Shown here in pieces: positions 25,952 through 63,739 of a stretch of DNA of 64,000 nucleotides (the stretch's first letter is position 1; every line of letters starts with the position of its first letter). The stretch covers positions 186,001 to 250,000 of the forward strand of contig MU404062.1 of the NCBI GenBank assembly GCA_022695795.1, given 5' to 3'. The DNA is from Biscogniauxia marginata (taxonomy: Eukaryota > Ascomycota > Sordariomycetes > Xylariales > Xylariaceae). The notes below the pieces were generated by a model. That model searched no databases. It was not told the DNA's origin and saw only the letters and a program-made list of their open reading frames with translations. The position numbers and the translations under genes were made by a program.

Positions 25952-26811
25952 ATCGGTAGAGTAAAGGGGGAGTCGAGTGAGAAGAGAAAGGAGAGAGAGA
26001 GAGAGAGAGAGGAGGGGAGGGAGATTGGACAAGGTTAGATGTTTATCATTAGAGGGATGCTTGTTGGTTGTGATTTGTGTCAAAGAAGGGAGGGGACTTG
26101 GGGTGTTAAAGATCGACTGATACCCACGGACTAGGGAGCCATGTGCATGGAAGTAAGGAAACAAGTCTGATCCCGGCCGTTTGGCTAGTGGACTTTGATT
26201 GCAGAGTATTTTACTTATGATGAATACGATACCCCGTCTATTGTGTATGAACACTGCAGAGTTACACTTTCATTCGTCTTTCTTTTTCCCGTCCGTATTC
26301 ATCGCATTATATCAGACTATTTCAATACCAATCGCGCCTTGCTTGATTTATCCAATTTCTATCCATGNNNNNNNNNNNNNNNNNNNNNNNNNNNNNNNNN
26401 NNNNNNNNNNNNNNNNNNNNNNNNNNNNNNNNNNNNNNNNNNNNNNNNNNNNNNNNNNNNNNNNATGAGATGATATCAAACCGTTCTCTTTTCATATATA
26501 TATATATACTCAACGTAAAGGTCTTCAATCCTAACACTCCTCCCCTTCGTGATGCCATCGCGCCTTGCTTGATTTATCCAATTTCTATCCATGAGATGAT
26601 ATCAAACCGTTCTCTTTTCATATATATATATATACTCAACGTAAAGGTCTTCAATCCTAACACTCCTCCCCTTCGTGATGCCATCGCCAAAAGTGATCAT
26701 GACACGTACCATATCCTGCCAGTACCTTTTAAAAAAGCCATCGATCTAACATACCCAGGTATCATCCGCATCAAGACACAACATACCACGTCCCCCCCAA
26801 AAATCCATTTA
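25952..26811. other. 3' flanking region with GA tract, assembly gap and tandem duplication
   Basis: Convergent intergenic region between the small protein gene and RAD1. It holds a (GA)n tract at about 25991-26011, 97 undetermined bases at 26368-26464 and a 126-bp duplication. No gene seen. Confidence 0.7.
26331..26682. repeat. Perfect 126-bp tandem duplication interrupted by a 97-N gap
   Basis: Copy 2 is 26557-26682. Copy 1 is 26331-26367 plus 26465-26556, split by the N run 26368-26464. The bases flanking the gap both contain ATG; overlapping those three bases makes copy 1 exactly 126 bp and identical to copy 2, including the internal (TA)n stretch. The gap therefore sits inside a repeat and may hide further copies or none. 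Confidence 0.9.
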
Positions 26812-51692: not shown

Positions 51693-53895
51693 TTATACGC
51701 CGGATTCCTCCCTCACCTTCTCGCTGTTGATGAACTCGCATCTCTCTAGCAACCTCTCCCACCTGATAGCCTGCTCTGGCTCAGTCGCGACGGCCCCGTC
51801 TTCGTCTTTTCTGACCACCACCGGCACGCCATCATGAGGGCCCCCAAACAACTTCAGCGAGACCTCGCTCGGGAACTCATCCTCGAGCTGCTCTTTTGTG
51901 GCCTCCGCGAATGCCGCGGGCCACCCCTCAAGGCCGGTGGCTCCAGAGGTCACAAACCTGGCAACATTCCGGCTCATGGCCTTTGCGAGCTCGAGCTGCG
52001 CGGCCGAGTTGTCCGCGCCACCGCCCACATTCTGCACGTTCAGCACGTAGGGGATATCGCTGAGGTGCACGACGCGCCACATAGGCACGCCCATGTACTC
52101 GTAAACGGGTATGTAGCGCGTGGCGTTGTGCTCGTAAAGGCGCATCTGCCCCGGCTCGACGCCGCCCTTCCGCACGTACTGCCACGCGAAGTCGAGCACA
52201 GGGCACGTGAACCAAAGGTCCCGGTTGATCTGTGCGGCGCGGTAGTACTGCGGCGAGATCGGCCCGTCGCGGTCGGGTCTTACGAGGCCTTCAAAGTCTG
52301 AGAGCGGGTACAGCTCCAGGAGCCTCTCCTTCGTCGATGCCGAGTGCTCGGTGAGCCAGAGTCCGAAGCTGGCTAAAACCTCGTCGTCGGTCGAGGTCGA
52401 GGGAGGGGCGTACCAGGCGCCGTCGTTCGTTACCCAGGAGGCGATCACTGGCACCCCCTTGACGATCTTCCCAGATCGCACCAGCCCCGAGGGTCGGTCA
52501 GGAATAAAATCATCATCATAAGTGGGGTAGAAGAATCCTTCTCCAAAGGGTGGGCGAGCATTCCGAGATGCTGTGACCGAAAGGTTGGCCAATATGTCGA
52601 CCGGCGCCTCCCGAAGACACTGTAAAGTTTCCGAAGATTGACTATCGTCTCCTTCTACGCAGCCTACCTCTTTTGCTATTGCTGCTGTATTATCAGCCAC
52701 CAGTCCCGACTTGGTATTAAAGTTTAGTCCTGGAGCACCAGACATCATTCTATTATCTCTAAGTCAGTATAGGAACAGCGCATTGAAAAGGGGCCACTTC
52801 TCACATTGCTTGCTGGAACGGAACGCCACGCTCTCCTCCAAAAGATGTGAGCTGCAAGCCAATATCGCTTGCTCCTACGCTTTGGCCGATTGCAGTTACT
52901 GTTATACGAATTTCGATCAGCAGTGTTGAGAAGTAGAAATTAAGTGCTCGAAACAAACAAATTGCTCACCTCTCTGTGGATCACCACCAAAGTTCTCGAT
53001 GTTGTCGCGGACCCCTATATGTCAAGTTATATAAGCACGCAGACTGAGACATCAAGATTATTTTCTTAATATCACGTACATTCAAATGCTGCTCGTTGAT
53101 CACGCAGACCGGCGTTCGTCAGTTTAGCCTCAACCATCGCTTTACTCGTTGCAAAGCCGAAAACTAGAAAGGCTTGTTAGATGACACCTATCGCGACAGC
53201 AAGTCTTGTAATTGACATACAGCCCAGACGGTAATTAATGGCGACAAAAATCAATGGCTGTCCATCTGTCGCAGCCTGTTTGACTAGACCATCAGGCGTG
53301 TAGAGGACCTCCGAGGCCGAGCCTAGGGCGTGGCCACCTACATTTGATGAAATCGAATTAGCACAAAAACATATTGATTAAATACCTGAGAGCATTGTAT
53401 AGATTATTAGCAAGTTAATGTCGTACCTCCATGCATCCATACCATTACCGGCAACTTGGTATCTGGATTAGTGCCACGCGGTCGGGCTATCCGCAAGCTT
53501 AGGCAGTTCTCGCTCACGTTGGTGACCCGGCTAGTGAACGGAAGCACATCTCCGGTCGCCTGTGGGCACCAAGCGCCGGGCTGGGTCGCATCAATGACTG
53601 ACCCCTTGGCGTGCCGGACCGGAATAGGGGGGGCGAAGCGATTCGCGCCCGAGGTGTCCTCCGCATAGAAGATATTCTGGAAATGCTCGACGCCCGAGGA
53701 CCGGCTGCCAAGGTATCTAATGTCTCGGACAGGGTCGATTACGACAGACGGGGAGTTGAGCCATGAGGGCAGCTCGATCCCAGACTCATCAACCGTCCGG
53801 ATCAGGGCTTCTCTGAATGGCTCTAGATAAACAGCAAGGATTCCAAAGAGCAAGGCGCCTAGACCTAAAACCCAAGAAAAAGCGCTTCTGGCCAT
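51693..53895 (-). CDS. Type-B carboxylesterase with N-terminal membrane anchor
   Basis: Six exons, 53427-53895, 53221-53337, 53080-53163, 52970-53014, 52805-52898 and 51693-52749, encode 621 residues. Introns of 55-89 nt have standard ends, and the phase is kept throughout. Residues 4-28 are hydrophobic (SAFSWVLGLGALLFGILAVY), a signal anchor. Alpha/beta-hydrolase marks follow: oxyanion HGGGHALGS spanning the first intron, INYRLGFFGF, LRDQRAAFEWVRDNIENFGG, and nucleophile Ser245 in GQSVGAS, where most relatives have GES. The catalytic His is probably in WRVVHLSDIPYVL. It hydrolyses carboxylic esters; the substrate is unknown. The start is MARSAF because the open frame further upstream begins with TTG. 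It forms the left edge of the putative RiPP locus, and its link to it is positional only. Confidence 0.9.
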
Positions 53896-54814
53896 GATTT
53901 CTCTGAATAGCAAGCACGCGCAAAACTAAATCATGCGGCCTTCACGCATTTTTCGAAGTGAAGTGTAGTGAAAGTACACAAATTATAAAAAGTTAGCATG
54001 CATTCTGTCCGTGAAAGAAAGCATACGATCAAATAAGTTTAGAGAGGCGAGGCTAGATGATCTCACACGGACCCTCCTCCAAGCTTACATAGCTACCTAC
54101 TTACATATCTGGATAGGCGGTTTCTCGGAGGCAAGGGGGTATTCCTACATTCCCGATCGGCCAACGACATTTATGATCCCGCGCCACTTACACGGTTTCC
54201 GGGCAAAGTTGGCTAGCCATTCGACTGTGCTGCCACGGAGCTCGGGGGAGTTAATACTTATGGGACATAGGTCGATCCCCGCATACGCACCTACATACGC
54301 AGCTCTTTAAAAGGATGACTAGAGTGTAACGGCAGCATTGCAGATCGGTGCTGACACCGCCCATCTCGTGCCACCCCGGTCTGTCGATCGTTCTAAGGCC
54401 GAGACTGCCGGTGCTTTGTTACTGAACGCTATTTGCCGAGTTCTAACTACTGCGGTACACTGTGTGCATTGATAGAATGCAGGCAACTAATAATAGCAAA
54501 TCGTGGGGGAACAGCGCACACGGTCCCCTCTTCCATGGCTCACGCAAGCCTTGTTCGTTGGATGGAAAGCAAGCTTGTCACCAAGACGTTCGTTATGGAT
54601 TAACTCGCCCTGAGGACTTGATGGCATCGAACAGGTCATCATGATAGATCGAACTCGTAAATCGGTGTTGGCATGGCATTTGAACGAATTCAGTGTCTTG
54701 GTATAGTGTTTATATCCTCGTCTCAGTGCATATAAATGAATGACTTATAGGAGATACAATTCAAAACCAGGCCGAGAGTGTCAAAATAAATCCTTGCTTG
54801 TAATAACCCAAGAC
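53896..54814. other. Intergenic region between carboxylesterase and membrane protein genes
   Basis: Both neighbours are on the minus strand, so this holds the esterase promoter and the 3' flank of the membrane protein gene. No gene seen. Confidence 0.6.
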
Positions 54815-56197
54815 TTAGACGGTTTCTTGGCTAGTGCTGACATACTTCCCACCGTGGATGCTCGTATGAGGCGTCGAGCCTCTACCGCGCCAGGCCTCTA
54901 AAGGTTTCGGTTCAGACATTCTAGAGATCTCGGTGCGGGTGAGAATGCCCGAGCTGTGCTCGAACGGCTCCTCGACATCGCTGTAGCCCGCCGCCGCAAC
55001 TACACTGGGTGCGTCGTGCCAAGGTATTGCATGATGCGAGGACGTCCCCAAGGCGACCTTCTCTTTCGAAGTGATGGACAAGCCCGTGCCATCATTAGAT
55101 AGCTTGCGGCTTGCCCGCTCGGGAGAGAGAAGGATCCAGTTGGTGGGGATAACTGACCGTAGGAAAGGGACTGAGCTGTCACGGAATTTACCAACTACGG
55201 GACCCATTGTCGGCATAGAACAGACGAGAATAGCGACATTGGCTTCGACATCGGACCAGAGAATGAACAAGGTGAAGTCCCCGATGAAGTCCGGATTTGT
55301 CACCTTGTCGTAAGAAGTCACTAGATAAATATACATGCGCGCTATACCAGCGCCAATTGTGCTATAGCCAAGTTAGCGTTTCTAGAGTATAGTAATTAGA
55401 CCTATGAGGGGGAGTGAGTAGGTATAGACTTACAACAAACCAACCATGAAGATACTCGTCACGCCAACCTTTTTCTTAGTTGGCATGTGGAGCCTCCAGA
55501 TGAGAGGGACGGGCATCAGTATGATGATGAAATCCGTCAACAAGTCCGTCGCCGTGAACACGGTGAGCATGGACAGCGTGTCGACGCACTGGGTCAAGAA
55601 GATACCGATGGGAGCCCAGTTCCAAGTCCACCGCGTGCCACACTGGAAAACAGTCGCGAAGAAAAAGGCGACAGACCATAACGTCAGGATGCCGACCATA
55701 GCCCAGCAGAAGATCACAAAGGACTTTGACTGCCCGAATATCCGCTTCCAGAGGAATACAAGCGAGAGCTTGATCAGGCCAAACGCGATCTTCTCAGTCG
55801 TCTGGAACGCATACTTGTACTTCTGCGCCAGGTGCTCCAGTTCGGTGGTGACGGGCCAGTTATCCACGACTGGAGAGTGGCCGGTGATGGCGCCCTGTAC
55901 TGTACCGCCGATAAAAATGCCATTTAAAGCAAGGACGAAAATCTTCCAACAGTGGTGCTCAAGGTTAGCTTCGAGATTTTGTAGAATAAGGGGGGCTAGC
56001 TAGTAAATAGGGGGTTATCGTGAGCTCACCAGTCCCACAAGTGCCAGCCAGTCATCCGCACCGAGACCAGCTCTCGTCAGTCGCCTAGCATAGAATCTGA
56101 AGACAACAGACAATGTGTTCAATAGGCAGAATATTGAGGCCATAACAATGAGGCCTTCGCGGTCGTCGACCAATTCCAAACGCGCAGAGTAAGCCAT
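54815..56197 (-). CDS. Fungal rhodopsin-like (PTH11-type) integral membrane protein
   Basis: Three exons, 56030-56197, 55434-55942 and 54815-55361, encode 407 residues; introns are 87 and 72 nt, both with CTAAC branch sites. Several hydrophobic helices match the fungal rhodopsin-domain family: an early RFYARRLTRAGLGADDWLAL, KIAFGLIKLSLVFLWKRIFG, WSVAFFFATVFQCG, FTATDLLTDFIIILMPVPLI and later GDFTLFILWSDVEANVAILV. The C-terminal 120 residues are hydrophilic and probably cytosolic. No N-terminal CFEM domain is present. Related proteins include GPCR-like receptors, but most are uncharacterised. Its start faces the UstYa gene at 56906 across a 708-bp divergent promoter, so co-regulation with the RiPP locus is possible. 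Confidence 0.9.
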
Positions 56198-56905: not shown

Positions 56906-57757
56906 ATGACCGCTTCCTTCGAGAGCAAAGAGAGCCATAGCCTGCTTGCCGATACTGCGGGTGTGAGTGACTACGATGGTGAGAAATGTCATATACCGTC
57001 ATCTCGGTCATCCTGGTGCCGGTGCCAGAAACTGCTCCTGGGGCTACTCTCATCATCTCTCATAGCGAACCTAATACTCATCACCCTACTCTTCCACCAC
57101 CCCGCCCCGGCACCACCAGACCAACCATCGCGATACGCCGGCCTCCAGCTCGTCCGCTCGGAGCCCTACGTGCGCGTGACCAAGTACAGCTCCCCGAACG
57201 AGACGTTTCAGGAGCAGCTATGGCGCGACATCAGCGTCGACGCGGGCGTGGTCGCGCTGCCGGACGCGTGGGCGGCGGGCCGGGGCCTGCGGGCGGCGCA
57301 GCGCTTCCCCTGGGACCCGAGCAAGGGGGTCTACATCCTGCACGGCTACCACAACCTGCACTGCCTGAAGGTGATCCGGCTGTCCGTGGGCGAGTACCGG
57401 CGCGGGGCGCCGCAGTCGCGGTCCTGGCGCCACGTGAGCCACTGCTTCGACGCGCTGCGCCGGCAGGTCCTGTGCGACGCCGACGACACGCCGCGGGCGA
57501 CGGAGCGCCGCGCCGAGGTCGTCAGCGGCTTGCTACAGCACCGCCGGTGCCGCAGCTGGGAGGAGCTCGAGGGCTTCGCGCGCGCCCACACGGCGTGCTA
57601 CAGGCGCCCCGAGGACCCGGAGTCGGAGGAGGGCAGGTCCGTCATCGACAGGTTCAAGCACTGCCCCCCGGATAGCGGGTACGTCGTCAGAGACGACTAC
57701 GTGCCTTCTGACGAGTTTCTGGTGGGACTTCCGGAGGAGTCTTTGGAGGATCCGTGA
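56906..57757 (+). CDS. UstYa-family (DUF3328) oxidase, copy 1
   Basis: Single exon, 283 residues. A hydrophilic cytosolic N-terminus precedes one membrane helix at about 42-63 (KLLLGLLSSSLIANLILITL). The lumenal domain has both UstYa copper-site motifs: HNLHC at 149-153 (preceded by GVYILHGY) and HVSHC at 176-180, followed by FDALRRQVLC. A PEDPESEEG acidic patch lies near the end. UstYa proteins carry out oxidative cyclisation of fungal RiPPs (ustiloxins, asperipin, phomopsins) and act in some other mycotoxin pathways. GC is clearly higher from about 57.1 to 57.7 kb than in the neighbouring DNA. It is tail-to-tail with the repeat precursor gene, 482 bp away, which supports a role in modifying that peptide. 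Confidence 0.93.
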   Translation: MTASFESKESHSLLADTAGVSDYDGEKCHIPSSRSSWCRCQKLLLGLLSSSLIANLILITLLFHHPAPAPPDQPSRYAGLQLVRSEPYVRVTKYSSPNETFQEQLWRDISVDAGVVALPDAWAAGRGLRAAQRFPWDPSKGVYILHGYHNLHCLKVIRLSVGEYRRGAPQSRSWRHVSHCFDALRRQVLCDADDTPRATERRAEVVSGLLQHRRCRSWEELEGFARAHTACYRRPEDPESEEGRSVIDRFKHCPPDSGYVVRDDYVPSDEFLVGLPEESLEDP

Positions 57758-58239: not shown

Positions 58240-58575
58240 TTAGAAGCCATCCGCGACGACAACATCGTCCCCCTCGCGTTTCTTGAAGCCGTCAGCAACG
58301 ACAACGTCGTCTTCGTCTCGCTTCTTGAAGCCATCCGCGACAACCACGTCGTCTTCCTCGCGGCGCCTGAAGCCATCGGCGATATCGACCGAGGCATCAT
58401 CGCGAGCAACGGTGCTCAACTCCGAACCTTGACGGGTTTTAGCTACGAGTTCGAGATAGTCTATGCACCTCTAAATGGGTAGTACGGTATTTGAGGACTT
58501 ACGAGGACGAGCCGGGAGTGCCGTGGCCATGCCACATAGCCCGAGGATCGCAGCGGAGAGCGTAAGGGATCGCAT
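58240..58575 (-). CDS. Kexin-processed repeat peptide precursor, UstA/dikaritin-type RiPP precursor
   Basis: Two exons, 58503-58575 and 58240-58442, joined across a 60-nt GTAAGT..TAG intron, encode 91 residues. Residues 1-19 form a signal peptide (hydrophobic, ending GMATA). A short spacer leads to four repeats of exactly 14 residues whose last Phe falls at 49, 63, 77 and 91. Each unit is an 11-residue block ending ADGF: three copies carry DDVVVADGF, and the first, more diverged copy has ASVDIADGF. Blocks are separated by RRR (50-52), KKR (64-66) and KKR (78-80), and a single Arg38 precedes the first. Known UstA-type precursors share this plan: signal peptide plus tandem cores between kexin sites. 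Two UstYa genes flank it. The core is not one I know. Mating pheromone precursors share the kexin-repeat plan, but the core lacks their Trp/Cys pattern. No ORF finder with a 60-codon ATG cutoff would report this gene. Confidence 0.88.
58269..58442 (-). repeat. Four tandem 42-bp coding repeats within the precursor exon 2
   Basis: The last part of exon 2 is built from 42-nt units (14 codons). On the plus strand this shows as the recurring word GAAGCCATC/GAAGCCGTC at 42-base spacing. Units 2-4 are nearly identical in DNA; unit 1 is diverged. The repeated part fills roughly 58243-58410. Confidence 0.8.
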
Positions 58576-59694: not shown

Positions 59695-60527
59695 ATGTTT
59701 CTAGTATCTAGCAGCGATGATAGCCAACATGCCTACGAACCACTTACGAACAGCGGAAGATCTAGTAGAGATATTGAGGGACCGCTCAGTGAGAGGCCGA
59801 GAAACACGTCAAAAGATTCAATAATATTAAGGCAAATTTGCAACCTGCTACTCGTTCTCGCCTTCGTCCTCACATCAGTGCTAAGCTTTGCCGCCGGAGC
59901 GCTCTCTACGCGCGGCATCGCCTACCTTGAGGGAAGCAAGACGGCACCGCAGATACCCCTTCCGACGGTCCAGCGAGAATTCGTCTACTCCTCGCCCTTT
60001 TCGCAAGAACCTCCCCAAGGCGAGGGGTCGGGCAAAGAATCAGAGCCGATTTGGGATGCATTAATACCGGGTAAGTTTTTATCATGATGCAACATCGACA
60101 CGCCGTCTCGTCGACTCGCTGATAATTTCAAACGTGGTAAGACGGGCTCGGGTATTTCAAAGATCAGCGTCTTGCGCCGCAGGTCTCGATACCCACGGCA
60201 TTCCACCAGCTACACTGCCTGTACCTGATAAGGCGCGCCTACTATTCACGGTCGGACGACCTGGAGGAGTTTGACTTTGGCAAGGACCGCGCCGTTCACG
60301 TCGCGCACTGCTTCGACTATCTCCGACAGGGACTGACGTGCTCGGTCGACACCACCGTCGAACCCGCCGTTGATGAGGAACATGGCTTCCTCGGCAGCGG
60401 GTTTCAGCGACAGTGCCGAGACTTCGACACGCTGAAGAAGTTCGTAGCAGAACGAAGGGTGTTTAATGCGAGTGGGTTTTTGGCGAATGGGCTTGATCAT
60501 GGGCATGCCCATATAGCTAGCAGCTAA
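59695..60527 (+). CDS. UstYa-family (DUF3328) oxidase, copy 2
   Basis: Two exons, 59695-60070 and 60142-60527, with a 71-nt GTAAGT..AAG intron, encode 253 residues. A Ser/Asp-rich cytosolic N-terminus is followed by a membrane helix at about 47-70 (ICNLLLVLAFVLTSVLSFAA). The lumenal domain contains WDALIPDGLGYF, then HQLHC at 147-151 (in SIPTAFHQLHCLYLIRRAYY) and HVAHC at 178-182 followed by FDYLRQGLTC. This is the complete HxxHC pair of UstYa/UstYb oxidases. The start at the Met of MFLVSSSDD was chosen over the open frame upstream, which looks non-coding. Divergent from the precursor. Two different UstYa homologs also occur in the ustiloxin cluster (UstYa and UstYb), and both are needed there. 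Confidence 0.93.
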
Positions 60528-61146: not shown

Positions 61147-62657
61147 TCAAGCGCAGACAACGGCGCAACCGCTAGGAACCGCGTTATAGCAGCCACTCGG
61201 AACGACGCACACACCGCCGCTCTCCTGGTAGAGGTCGCGCCACCAGTCATTCAGCTGGTCCGAATAATCCTCACCCAGATCATCCGCGGAGGCGAAGGTA
61301 TCGAAGTTGAACGTGTAATCCGGGTTGTCCTCGGCGTCCTCGTCGTGCACGTCGTCACCGGGGGCCGTCCCGTTGCTCGCCGAGTACGCGGTCGGGCATT
61401 TGGGATCGTGGGAATAGCTGTAGAAGTTGTTGACGGCCGGCAGCGCGACGGAGCCGTTGCCGTAAAGATCCCAGGCCGCGAGACTCGCGTTATCGGACGA
61501 GCGAGTCTCGACGCTGTCGCTGTCGCGGTTGTTCGGGTCCCACACGCTGCTCGGGGCAGCGGGCGCGAGCGGTAAATGCGGGTAGATGTTGCCGAGCCTG
61601 CTTTGGATGTAGCGGACCGAGGCGTAGAGCGCGAGGGAGTCGGCGTTGCGCATGACCCATTCGCCCGTATCAACGGCATAGCGTGCCAGGGCTTTCACGG
61701 GCTGCGGGCCGTACGCTTTCACGGTAATGGAGTGGCCACCCACCCCCCGTGCTGTCATGCGTAGGTCCGAGATGTGTCTATTGTCGCCGTAGGATTCGGC
61801 GTTGACGGTCCAGTCGACATGCATGAGCTCATGCGCCCACACATGGCCTTTGTTCATCATGTAACTTCCGACATCATATTGCCATTCCGGTCCCATTCCG
61901 GGGTCATTGCCATTGTCAATGGCATCATTCAGATTGAGAGTTTGGAAGTAGCGCGGACAGAAGTTTATGCGTGCGAGACCAGAGTCGGCGTCCTTGTTGG
62001 TCGTGTATGCGTATGGGCCACGGTTGGCGGGATTAGGATCGCAAGCATTCTTGCACTTCCTCCTTGGATCGTCGCAGCGGACGTGAAGACGCCAATCGAA
62101 AGGAGTGGGAATATATCCTGGCTGAATAGTGGCCCATTTCTTGTACAGGTCTGAGACGGGTGTTAGGCGAGTTATAGGTATGTATAAAGGCGTGTAGTAT
62201 ACTAACCCTTGATCCTGGTCTGAACACCTACGTTCAGGGCGGGCGGTCCTAGGTATTCGACAGCAGAGGCTTCGTTCCAGTTAATGTTATCGGCCTCTTC
62301 GAGAATCTGGTTCATGATCTTCCACGATTGGAGCCAGCCTTTATAGATCTCATTACCATCCCAGTTGTCACAGCCATCGTAGCGAACGAGACGGGTGGCC
62401 GCGGTCCCAATATCTCCGTCATAGGTCATCCCCTCAGCCTCTAGAGCATTCTTGAAGTAGGAGATAGCCTGCGTGATATGGATGTCGACCGACACAGGTT
62501 GATGGTCGGAAGTGACGTTGGTCATTACCGTGGTAATGTTGTCTTGCCTGATGGCGAAGGAATTCCGAAGGCCATGAGGAATAGATACACAAAAAGCTAT
62601 TTGGATCCAGAGGGACGGGACAGTCACGAAAAGGAAAGAAAGGAGAGTACGAGTCAT
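61147..62657 (-). CDS. Secreted HExxH metallopeptidase, aspzincin/M35-like
   Basis: Two exons, 62207-62657 and 61147-62150, with a 56-nt intron, encode 484 residues. Residues 1-25 are a signal peptide (LLSFLFVTVPSLWIQIAFCV). The zinc-binding helix HELMH is at 257-261 in HVWAHELMHVDW. Downstream come VKAYGPQPVKALARY and RNADSLALYASVRYI (NAD at 319-321), resembling the deuterolysin/lysine-specific metalloendopeptidase superfamily, where an Asp is the third metal ligand. Six or more cysteines and several N-glycosylation sequons fit a secreted enzyme. The C-terminus is Cys/Gly/Pro-rich. It cleaves peptide bonds outside the cell or in the secretory route; substrate unknown. Location next to UstYa-2 makes it a candidate peptide-maturation protease, but fungal genomes hold many such genes. 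Confidence 0.85.
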
Positions 62658-63739
62658 CTCGACGACAAAATGATCGAGATTAGAACGATCGAGAATAATT
62701 CAAGAGAGGGAAAACGATAGGTGTGGTGAACTCAACGTAGGTAGGGAGCATCTTCACAGCCATTTTATACTCCTATCGAGGTACTTTCTAGTTATTCGAA
62801 GGCATCGTACAAGGCTGAAAGGATGCATCCTGTTGGTACTTAACCATATGTCTGCATGAAAGCAATTCAACAAGCGGGACGAGGAGGGTACAGCTTGCAG
62901 ATACTTGGGACGAAATTGGCACCACTATATCAATTTCATTCTCAAACTGGTGCGACGTAACCTAAACCATCATCACTAGAATTACTGCGATCGCTTTTGT
63001 ATTTTGCACATTTCAAGCCGTATTCGTTCGCAGCATTCAGCCGCCAGTGTCGAGAAGCCTAAACTGCTCCTATAAAGCGCATAGGAATTGGGGATACCTA
63101 ATAGCCAGAGTGTCCGGTCCGCATGGTGAATTGATAACACTGAGGAAGCTCAAGCGACAAACATCTGTGTATGATGGATGTATCGTTCCAAGGTTGCCGC
63201 CGAGAGACAGAGGAGTTCGTATGCATCAGTCTCTTGCCTGGTCTCCAGCAGTAGCCAAGCGGCGTGGGAACATGAAAGCATCAGGGGTGCTGCCCCTGGT
63301 GATGAAGCGAGTGAATCATTATTTAGACTGATCCGTCTGGTGCTACCACTAAGGTCAGTGTTGGGGTCGGTTGAGTGTCATGCTGACCACCAGCCTAATG
63401 GGCGTCAAAGATAAGTAAACTTGATAGGTTGCGTGAGGCAGAAGAGCAGGGAAAGAAAAAGGGGGAGAGGAGGGCTCTGCATAGGGAGGTGGCGGTGGCG
63501 GTGGCGCGTCTAGGGTCGGTCATCCTCGGCTGAAAGTGGCTGAAACTGAATACATGAAATGAAACCAACAGGTATCGTTCGCATTTCTATTTCCGGCATC
63601 GCCCTCAGCCTGTCGCTGGCGTTTTGATATAGCAACCAGTCCCCAACGCAGCGATCCTTTTACCGGCGCACCACGTTCCCACGTACGTGTAAACACAAAA
63701 CTACTCACTGAATTACCAATATCCCGCAACCCTCACATC
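62658..63739. other. Divergent intergenic region
   Basis: Holds the promoters of the metallopeptidase gene (left) and the partial gene at 63740 (right). No gene seen. Confidence 0.55.
62763..62769 (-). promoter_or_regulatory. TATA box of the metallopeptidase gene
   Basis: TATAAAA on the minus strand, about 105 bp upstream of the ATG at 62657; standard spacing for an inducible fungal promoter. Confidence 0.55.

What the first reader, a model, noticed from the sequence alone, without database searches (positions are those of the whole stretch)
58240..58575. Unannotated kexin-repeat RiPP precursor with a new ADGF core
Seen: a 91-residue protein with a signal peptide and four 14-residue repeats ending ADGF, cut apart by RRR/KKR sites. 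Known: UstA, PhomA and other dikaritin-type precursors have this design. Inferred: the locus makes a small cyclic peptide from a DDVVVADGF-like core. The gene is split by an intron and has no long ATG ORF, so automatic annotation would easily miss it.
Basis: partly seen in the sequence, partly recalled or inferred. Interest (0 to 1): 0.92.

Follow-up and report, generated by a model that had tools for sequence, protein, structure and literature searches.

The report
Phe-core fungal RiPP precursor gene
A fungus carries a small, apparently secreted protein made of four near-identical short peptides separated by protease sites, flanked by two enzymes of the kind that chemically modify such peptides, so it very probably makes an unknown small modified peptide of a known general type.

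Summary
On the minus strand, 58575-58240, a split gene encodes a signal-peptide-like start and four [VI]x[VI]ADGF cores separated by RRR, KKR, KKR. Four relatives were found (Cytospora, Rostrohypoxylon, Whalleya, one weak unnamed record). In all 19 cores Phe is last, positions 1 and 3 are Val/Ile/Leu, and there is no Tyr. In Rostrohypoxylon and Whalleya a relative of the first UstYa lies on a contig of the same length as the precursor's. So this is a KEP/dikaritin-type RiPP locus with a Tyr-free core that I did not find in print (supplements unread). Thousands of KEPs are known: a new member of a known kind. That the product is modified or cyclic, and where, is untested; the nearest chemical analogy is victorin.

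The parts
58503..58575 (-). precursor exon 1: signal-peptide-like N terminus
   Evidence: splice reproduces P0001 exactly; hydrophobic stretch and small residues at -3/-1; no SignalP run
   Evidence: branch-like CTAA 15 bases from the 3' end
58240..58427 (-). precursor exon 2: four [VI]x[VI]ADGF cores separated by RRR, KKR, KKR; ends ADGF-stop
56906..57757 (+). UstY1: UstYa/DUF3328 protein, 283 aa, one exon, HNLHC and HVSHC
   Evidence: PF11807 75.9 bits, cut-off 25; motifs; 120 proteins listed at E<=1e-20, the query itself included
59695..60527 (+). UstY2: UstYa/DUF3328 protein, 253 aa by my model with intron 60071-60141, HQLHC and HVAHC
   Evidence: PF11807 79.5 bits on the second-exon frame; splice model, no RNA; motifs

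Best explanation
The locus is a small dikaritin-type (UstYa-associated) RiPP cluster. The precursor enters the secretory pathway; Kex2 cuts after the RRR/KKR sites and a Kex1-like carboxypeptidase trims the basic residues, leaving EEDDVVVADGF, DEDDVVVADGF and EGDDVVVADGF (and a leader-linked VDIADGF). The two UstYa oxidases modify the conserved [VI]x[VI][AG]DGF part; most likely they join the C-terminal Phe to an upstream Val/Ile or oxidise/desaturate Val and Asp, and further trimming gives a short secreted peptide. Shown: gene, repeats, flanking UstYa genes, conserved cores and basic sites. Inferred: secretion, cleavage, the modification, its chemistry and the product's role.
For: Precursor between two UstYa genes that pass the Pfam cut-off and carry both HXXHC motifs, with no recognised gene in between. 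Relatives: Cytospora chrysosperma, Rostrohypoxylon terebratum, Whalleya microplaca (91, 116, 95 aa, no Pfam domain) and a weak one (E 0.33) on a 3768-base ENA contig. In 19 cores of 5 proteins position 1 is V/I in 19, position 3 V/I/L in 19, position 2 varies, Phe 19, Asp 18; 16 of the 19 are followed by a dibasic site and the other 3 are the last core of their protein. The last four positions were part of the pattern that collected the cores; cutting at dibasic sites instead gives the same picture. R. terebratum: UstY1 relative F5B19DRAFT_468783 and precursor F5B19DRAFT_468784 have consecutive ids and contigs of equal length, 158033; W. microplaca: both on contigs of length 645043. No second copy of the precursor was found in the genome. 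Literature: 22% of 7878 KEPs have a DUF3328 gene nearby, on average 3.09 genes away, while 98.6% of 216 putative fungal pheromones have none (PMC7329392, abstract and passages); UstY enzymes use a dicopper site (PMC12186524, passages).
Against: No expression, peptide or knock-out data. Most UstY1 relatives have no known ADGF precursor; on a tree of 42 of the 120 the three precursor-linked ones are not a clade and are no more clustered than shuffled labels (500 of 500 shuffles as low), although they fall in one modestly supported group of six (83/87). No tyrosinase, P450, methyltransferase or transporter was seen in the neighbouring frames, so the cluster would be minimal. Contig identity in other species rests on equal contig lengths.
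Confidence: 0.82

Rival explanations
1. The gene makes linear Kex2-cut secreted peptides (signal, pheromone-like or effector-like) that no UstYa touches; the flanking UstYa genes serve another pathway.
For: About 78% of KEPs have no DUF3328 neighbour (PMC7329392); UstYa genes are common in this genome, 34 exon matches on 17 contigs, a lower bound; UstY1 relatives are widespread without a detected ADGF precursor; the tree gives no extra support for the pairing; cores have no Tyr.
Against: The precursor sits between two UstYa genes; a UstY1 relative is on the apparent precursor contig in two further genera; 98.6% of 216 putative pheromone KEPs lack DUF3328 neighbours.
Confidence: 0.13
2. A special case of the best explanation: victorin-like extended modification (chlorination, desaturation, change of the Phe ring) rather than a simple Phe macrocycle.
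For: Victorin is said to be closed between the C-terminal Phe and an internal Leu and is chlorinated (PMC9233826, passages); two UstYa enzymes could do two different oxidations; DUF3328 proteins chlorinate, hydroxylate and desaturate.
Against: Core residues differ; no further known tailoring genes seen nearby apart from a short-chain dehydrogenase and a carboxylesterase frame 3-14 kb away.
Confidence: 0.2
3. Chance low-complexity repeat with no coding role.
For: Single short array, no second copy found in the genome.
Against: Annotated gene, four relatives in other genomes, mostly third-position changes among the three similar repeats, conserved dibasic sites.
Confidence: 0.01

Closest known systems
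Dikaritins (ustiloxin, phomopsin, asperipin-2a) with UstYa/DUF3328 oxidases
   Same: Signal-like start, repeated cores between dibasic sites, adjacent DUF3328 genes with double HXXHC.
   Different: No Tyr in any of 19 cores, so the Tyr-O ether of ustiloxin, phomopsin and asperipin cannot form without prior Phe hydroxylation; no tyrosinase or peptidase family was matched nearby, though an HExxH frame lies beside UstY2.
Victorin precursor system (Cochliobolus victoriae)
   Same: Kex2-type multicore precursor, DUF3328 enzymes, ring closed through a C-terminal Phe (PMC9233826, passages; DUF3328 in that cluster partly recalled).
   Different: Core sequence [VI]x[VI][AG]DGF is its own; the partner residue would be Val/Ile, not Leu.
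KEPs (Kex2-processed repeat proteins; PMC6339444 of 2019, PMC7329392 of 2020)
   Same: Four repeated motifs interspaced by three Kex2 sites.
   Different: 'ADGF' is not in the main text of PMC7329392 nor 'DGF' in that of PMC6339444; figures and supplements were not seen.
Epichloecyclins (GigA)
   Same: Multicore Kex2 precursor; aliphatic residue N-terminal, aromatic residue later in the core (PMC9233826, passages).
   Different: The aromatic residue is Phe at the end of the core, not an internal Tyr.

Membership tests
KEP | signal peptide for ER entry | tested here: inconclusive
   Hydrophobic stretch (KD 1.95-2.34 over 11 residues) and small residues at -3/-1 in all 5 proteins; SignalP was not available
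[quoted passage not shown]
   Four motifs, three sites
KEP | at least 3 tandem repeats of at least 8 aa between KR/KK/RK/RR sites (wording of PMC7329392 section 13) | tested here: inconclusive
   Read strictly, P0001 has 2 fragments between two sites (P0002 2, P0003 4, P0004 2, P0005 3); counting the C-terminal fragment, 3, 3, 5, 2, 3
Dikaritin | clustered DUF3328/UstYa gene with two HXXHC motifs (PMC12048977) | tested here: met
   Two flanking genes, PF11807 75.9 and 79.5 bits, motifs found; such genes also occur in non-RiPP clusters
Dikaritin | product carries a UstYa-installed oxidative modification (e.g. side-chain macrocycle) | not testable with these tools
   needs mass spectrometry
Ustiloxin/phomopsin subgroup | core YxIx closed between Tyr and Ile (PMC7329392) | tested here: not met
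   No Tyr in any of 19 cores
Victorin-like | C-terminal Phe cross-linked to an internal Leu (PMC9233826) | tested here: inconclusive
   Phe last in 19 of 19 cores, but candidate partner positions are V/I with one L; the bond is not testable here
Fungal alpha-type pheromone | as a rule no DUF3328 gene nearby (98.6% of 216, PMC7329392); a tendency, not a strict definition | tested here: not met
   Flanked by two

The most novel reading that the evidence does not exclude
A UstYa-modified RiPP family, present in Xylariales and Diaporthales, whose only aromatic core residue is an invariant C-terminal Phe, so that its two oxidases must make a non-phenolic link (Phe ring or C-beta to Val/Ile) or another C-H oxidation.
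Probability: 0.35. Interest if true: 0.6.

Novelty: new member of a known kind. Interest (0 to 1): 0.42.

Why it matters
It gives a compact, testable pairing of a Tyr-free core with two UstYa enzymes, useful for asking what else these copper oxidases can do beyond phenol ethers. It also shows that a 'hypothetical protein' hides a conserved precursor family found in two orders of Sordariomycetes. As a class it is ordinary: 7878 KEPs, in 838 types plus 2560 stand-alone ones, had been listed by 2020 (PMC7329392, abstract and passages).

Tried and rejected
Paralogues in the same genome: only the locus itself matched. Solved structures for UstY1, alone and as a 45-row profile, and for the 61150-62280 frame: none. 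NCBIfam for the precursor, UstY1 and two neighbouring frames: none. Tailoring genes: Pfam on 99 of the 133 frames of 65 aa or more listed for 43-70 kb gave a short-chain dehydrogenase and five weak or sub-threshold families. The 34 frames left out were those already scanned, frames overlapping the esterase, UstYa and precursor genes, one frame between precursor and UstY2, and four short frames at the far end. Fifteen larger frames elsewhere in the window or up to 29 kb beyond it gave ERCC4, WH1/WH2, BRCT/fn3, 2EXR, myosin and HAM1 matches and nine had no match. Papers: none holds both UstYa and Biscogniauxia; 'ADGF' with 'RiPP' gave 66 papers of which the 20 listed are unrelated by title; IADGF, VADGF, DGFKKR, VGDGFK, DGFKRR gave 8 papers, unrelated by title and start of abstract, not opened (one is a maize peptidome under fungal infection); 7 papers hold 'Biscogniauxia marginata' and 'genome', none on this gene by title. 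'DGF' is absent from the main texts of PMC12048977, PMC7099791 and PMC9632046. A chance repeat and a pheromone were rejected as above. Three precursor-linked UstY1 proteins as one clade: not borne out by the tree.

Full report
What is there. The window is bases 186001-250000 of contig C8 (727578 bases) of a 45.3-Mb genome. The best protein match to the finding is hypothetical protein F5X99DRAFT_370221 of Biscogniauxia marginata on a contig of the same length, so I take the window to be from that fungus (Xylariales). The minus strand from 58575 to 58240 encodes it exactly if 58502-58428 is removed as an intron: MRSLTLSAAILGLCGMATALPARPRSELSTVARDDASVDIADGF-RRR-EEDDVVVADGF-KKR-DEDDVVVADGF-KKR-EGDDVVVADGF. 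Neither was checked with RNA. The only CTAA branch-like site lies 15 bases before the annotated intron end. The claim that annotation missed the gene is wrong.

More than chance. The array has the second highest score among the tandem repeats of the window (168; a 126-base repeat at 26465-26697 scores 387). Cutting six-frame translations of 606 overlapping 420-base tiles at dibasic sites, only the 4 tiles at this locus have three or more fragments with the same last four residues. The three closely similar repeats differ mostly at third codon positions (2, 6, 21), with 15 synonymous and 8 non-synonymous codon differences; including the divergent first repeat the counts are 24 and 31.

Neighbours. 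Both have two HXXHC motifs, a feature proposed to mark RiPP-related DUF3328 proteins (PMC12048977, passages and section 22). No recognised gene lies between either and the precursor. In print 22% of 7878 KEPs have a DUF3328 gene nearby, on average 3.09 genes away (PMC7329392, abstract, passages and section 13). Further out come a fungal rhodopsin-domain gene, a carboxylesterase and a short-chain dehydrogenase; no tyrosinase, P450, methyltransferase or transporter was matched among the frames scanned. A frame with an HExxH motif beside UstY2 matches no family. The cluster borders are not known.

Relatives. Searching 5.8 billion proteins with the precursor gave itself and Cytospora chrysosperma VSDG_03392; a two-sequence profile added Rostrohypoxylon terebratum F5B19DRAFT_468784, Whalleya microplaca F5B20DRAFT_543765 and, weakly (E 0.33), a protein on a 3768-base ENA contig. 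Three of the four named species are Xylariales, Cytospora is Diaporthales. The five proteins hold 19 cores: position 1 V/I in 19, position 2 free, position 3 V/I/L in 19, then A/G/S, D (18) or E (1), G (17) or A (2), and F in 19. The last four positions were part of the pattern that collected the cores; splitting at dibasic sites instead gives the same picture, the exceptions being RL after the last Cytospora core and short tails ADNSE and DVR. Sixteen of 19 cores are followed by a dibasic site, the other three are the last of their protein, and none contains Tyr.

Linkage elsewhere. UstY1 gave 120 proteins at E <= 1e-20, itself included; 117 have two HXXHC motifs, 2 have one, 1 has none. Among them are R. 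terebratum F5B19DRAFT_468783 (61% identical; contig length 158033 as for its precursor, with the preceding id) and W. microplaca F5B20DRAFT_166791 (62%; contig length 645043 as for its precursor). A tree of 42 of the 120 does not make the three precursor-linked UstY1 proteins a clade (3 changes, 500 of 500 shuffles as low); they fall with three others in a group of six with modest support (83/87). So the pairing is shown in three genera at most, and UstY1 relatives in many other genomes have no known partner precursor.

How it probably works. By analogy with the dikaritins (PMC9233826, passages), the protein enters the ER, Kex2 cuts after the basic triplets, and UstYa oxidases modify the cores; final trimming frees the peptide. 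UstY enzymes are reported to use a dicopper site and to make, for example, a Tyr-O to Phe-C-beta ether (PMC12186524, passages); others of the family are held to desaturate Ile, Asp and Pro in phomopsins, to chlorinate or to hydroxylate (PMC10880069, passages; PMC12048977, section 22). With no Tyr in the core the phenol ether is excluded unless Phe is first hydroxylated. The closest chemical precedent is victorin, said to be closed between the C-terminal Phe and an internal Leu (PMC9233826). The invariant Phe and the two always aliphatic positions, with a free residue between them, suggest these as the sites. This step is inference.

What is not shown. No transcript, peptide or mutant is available. 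A linear secreted peptide remains possible (about 0.13). A pheromone is unlikely because of the UstYa neighbours.

Novelty. Strings from the cores were found in no relevant open-access paper (8 papers, judged by title and start of abstract), and the main texts of the two KEP surveys do not hold 'ADGF' (PMC7329392) or 'DGF' (PMC6339444); figures and supplementary tables were not seen. In the passages seen, the Hypoxylaceae survey reports ustiloxin-like clusters (PMC8403587). I file it as a new member of a known kind, with an unusual Tyr-free core.

A side result. Around the other UstYa places listed (16 contigs, loci L014-L031, 5-10 kb each) a scan for dibasic-bounded repeats found three more KEP-like frames: on C39 seven QFVIDGYEE repeats, on C15 three NWN.AAWSNFVKSYVDGAE-like repeats, and on C21 a single frame in which a signal-like start and three TNWY[AS]DSA[AS]G[IM] repeats are followed by a region with HQYHC and HAIHC. 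The last has only a sub-threshold UstYa match (E 0.011, 16.1 bits, cut-off 25) and could be a precursor fused to its own UstYa-like enzyme; it deserves its own study. A search for DUF3328 with 'fused' and precursor terms showed no paper on such a fusion among the 10 listed of 94, by title and start of abstract.

Noticed in passing
L020:6458-7343 (+), G000:C21: One gene model (278 aa, one 49-base intron) joins a signal-like start, three TNWY[AS]DSA[AS]G[IM] repeats separated by dibasic sites and a C-terminal region with HQYHC and HAIHC (UstYa match E 0.011, below cut-off): possible RiPP precursor fused to its own UstYa-like oxidase.
   Followed up: partly
L024:1013-1639 (-), G000:C39: KEP-like precursor with seven QFVIDGYEE repeats about 3 kb from another UstYa gene; its IDGY resembles the ADGF core here with Tyr for Phe.
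   Followed up: partly
L014:2546-2809 (-), G000:C15: KEP-like frame with three NWN.AAWSNFVKSYVDGAE-like repeats about 2 kb from a UstYa gene.
   Followed up: no
window 61150-62280 (-): 377-aa frame with an HELMH (HExxH) motif and no Pfam or PDB match, next to UstY2; the frame at 62205-62699 upstream holds a signal-like start. Possibly a secreted metalloprotease; membership of the cluster unknown.
   Followed up: partly
window 51696-55999 (-): Carboxylesterase (two frames) and fungal rhodopsin-domain gene (two frames) just before UstY1.
   Followed up: no
UstY1 tree: The UstY1 tree seems to depart from species relations (as recalled): Aspergillus avenaceus falls among Xylariales and Diatrype stigma pairs closely with Hypoxylon fragiforme, which may mean gene transfer.
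   Followed up: no
window 26465-26697: 126-base tandem repeat, 1.9 copies, 93% matches, just outside the ERCC4-domain frame's low end.
   Followed up: no
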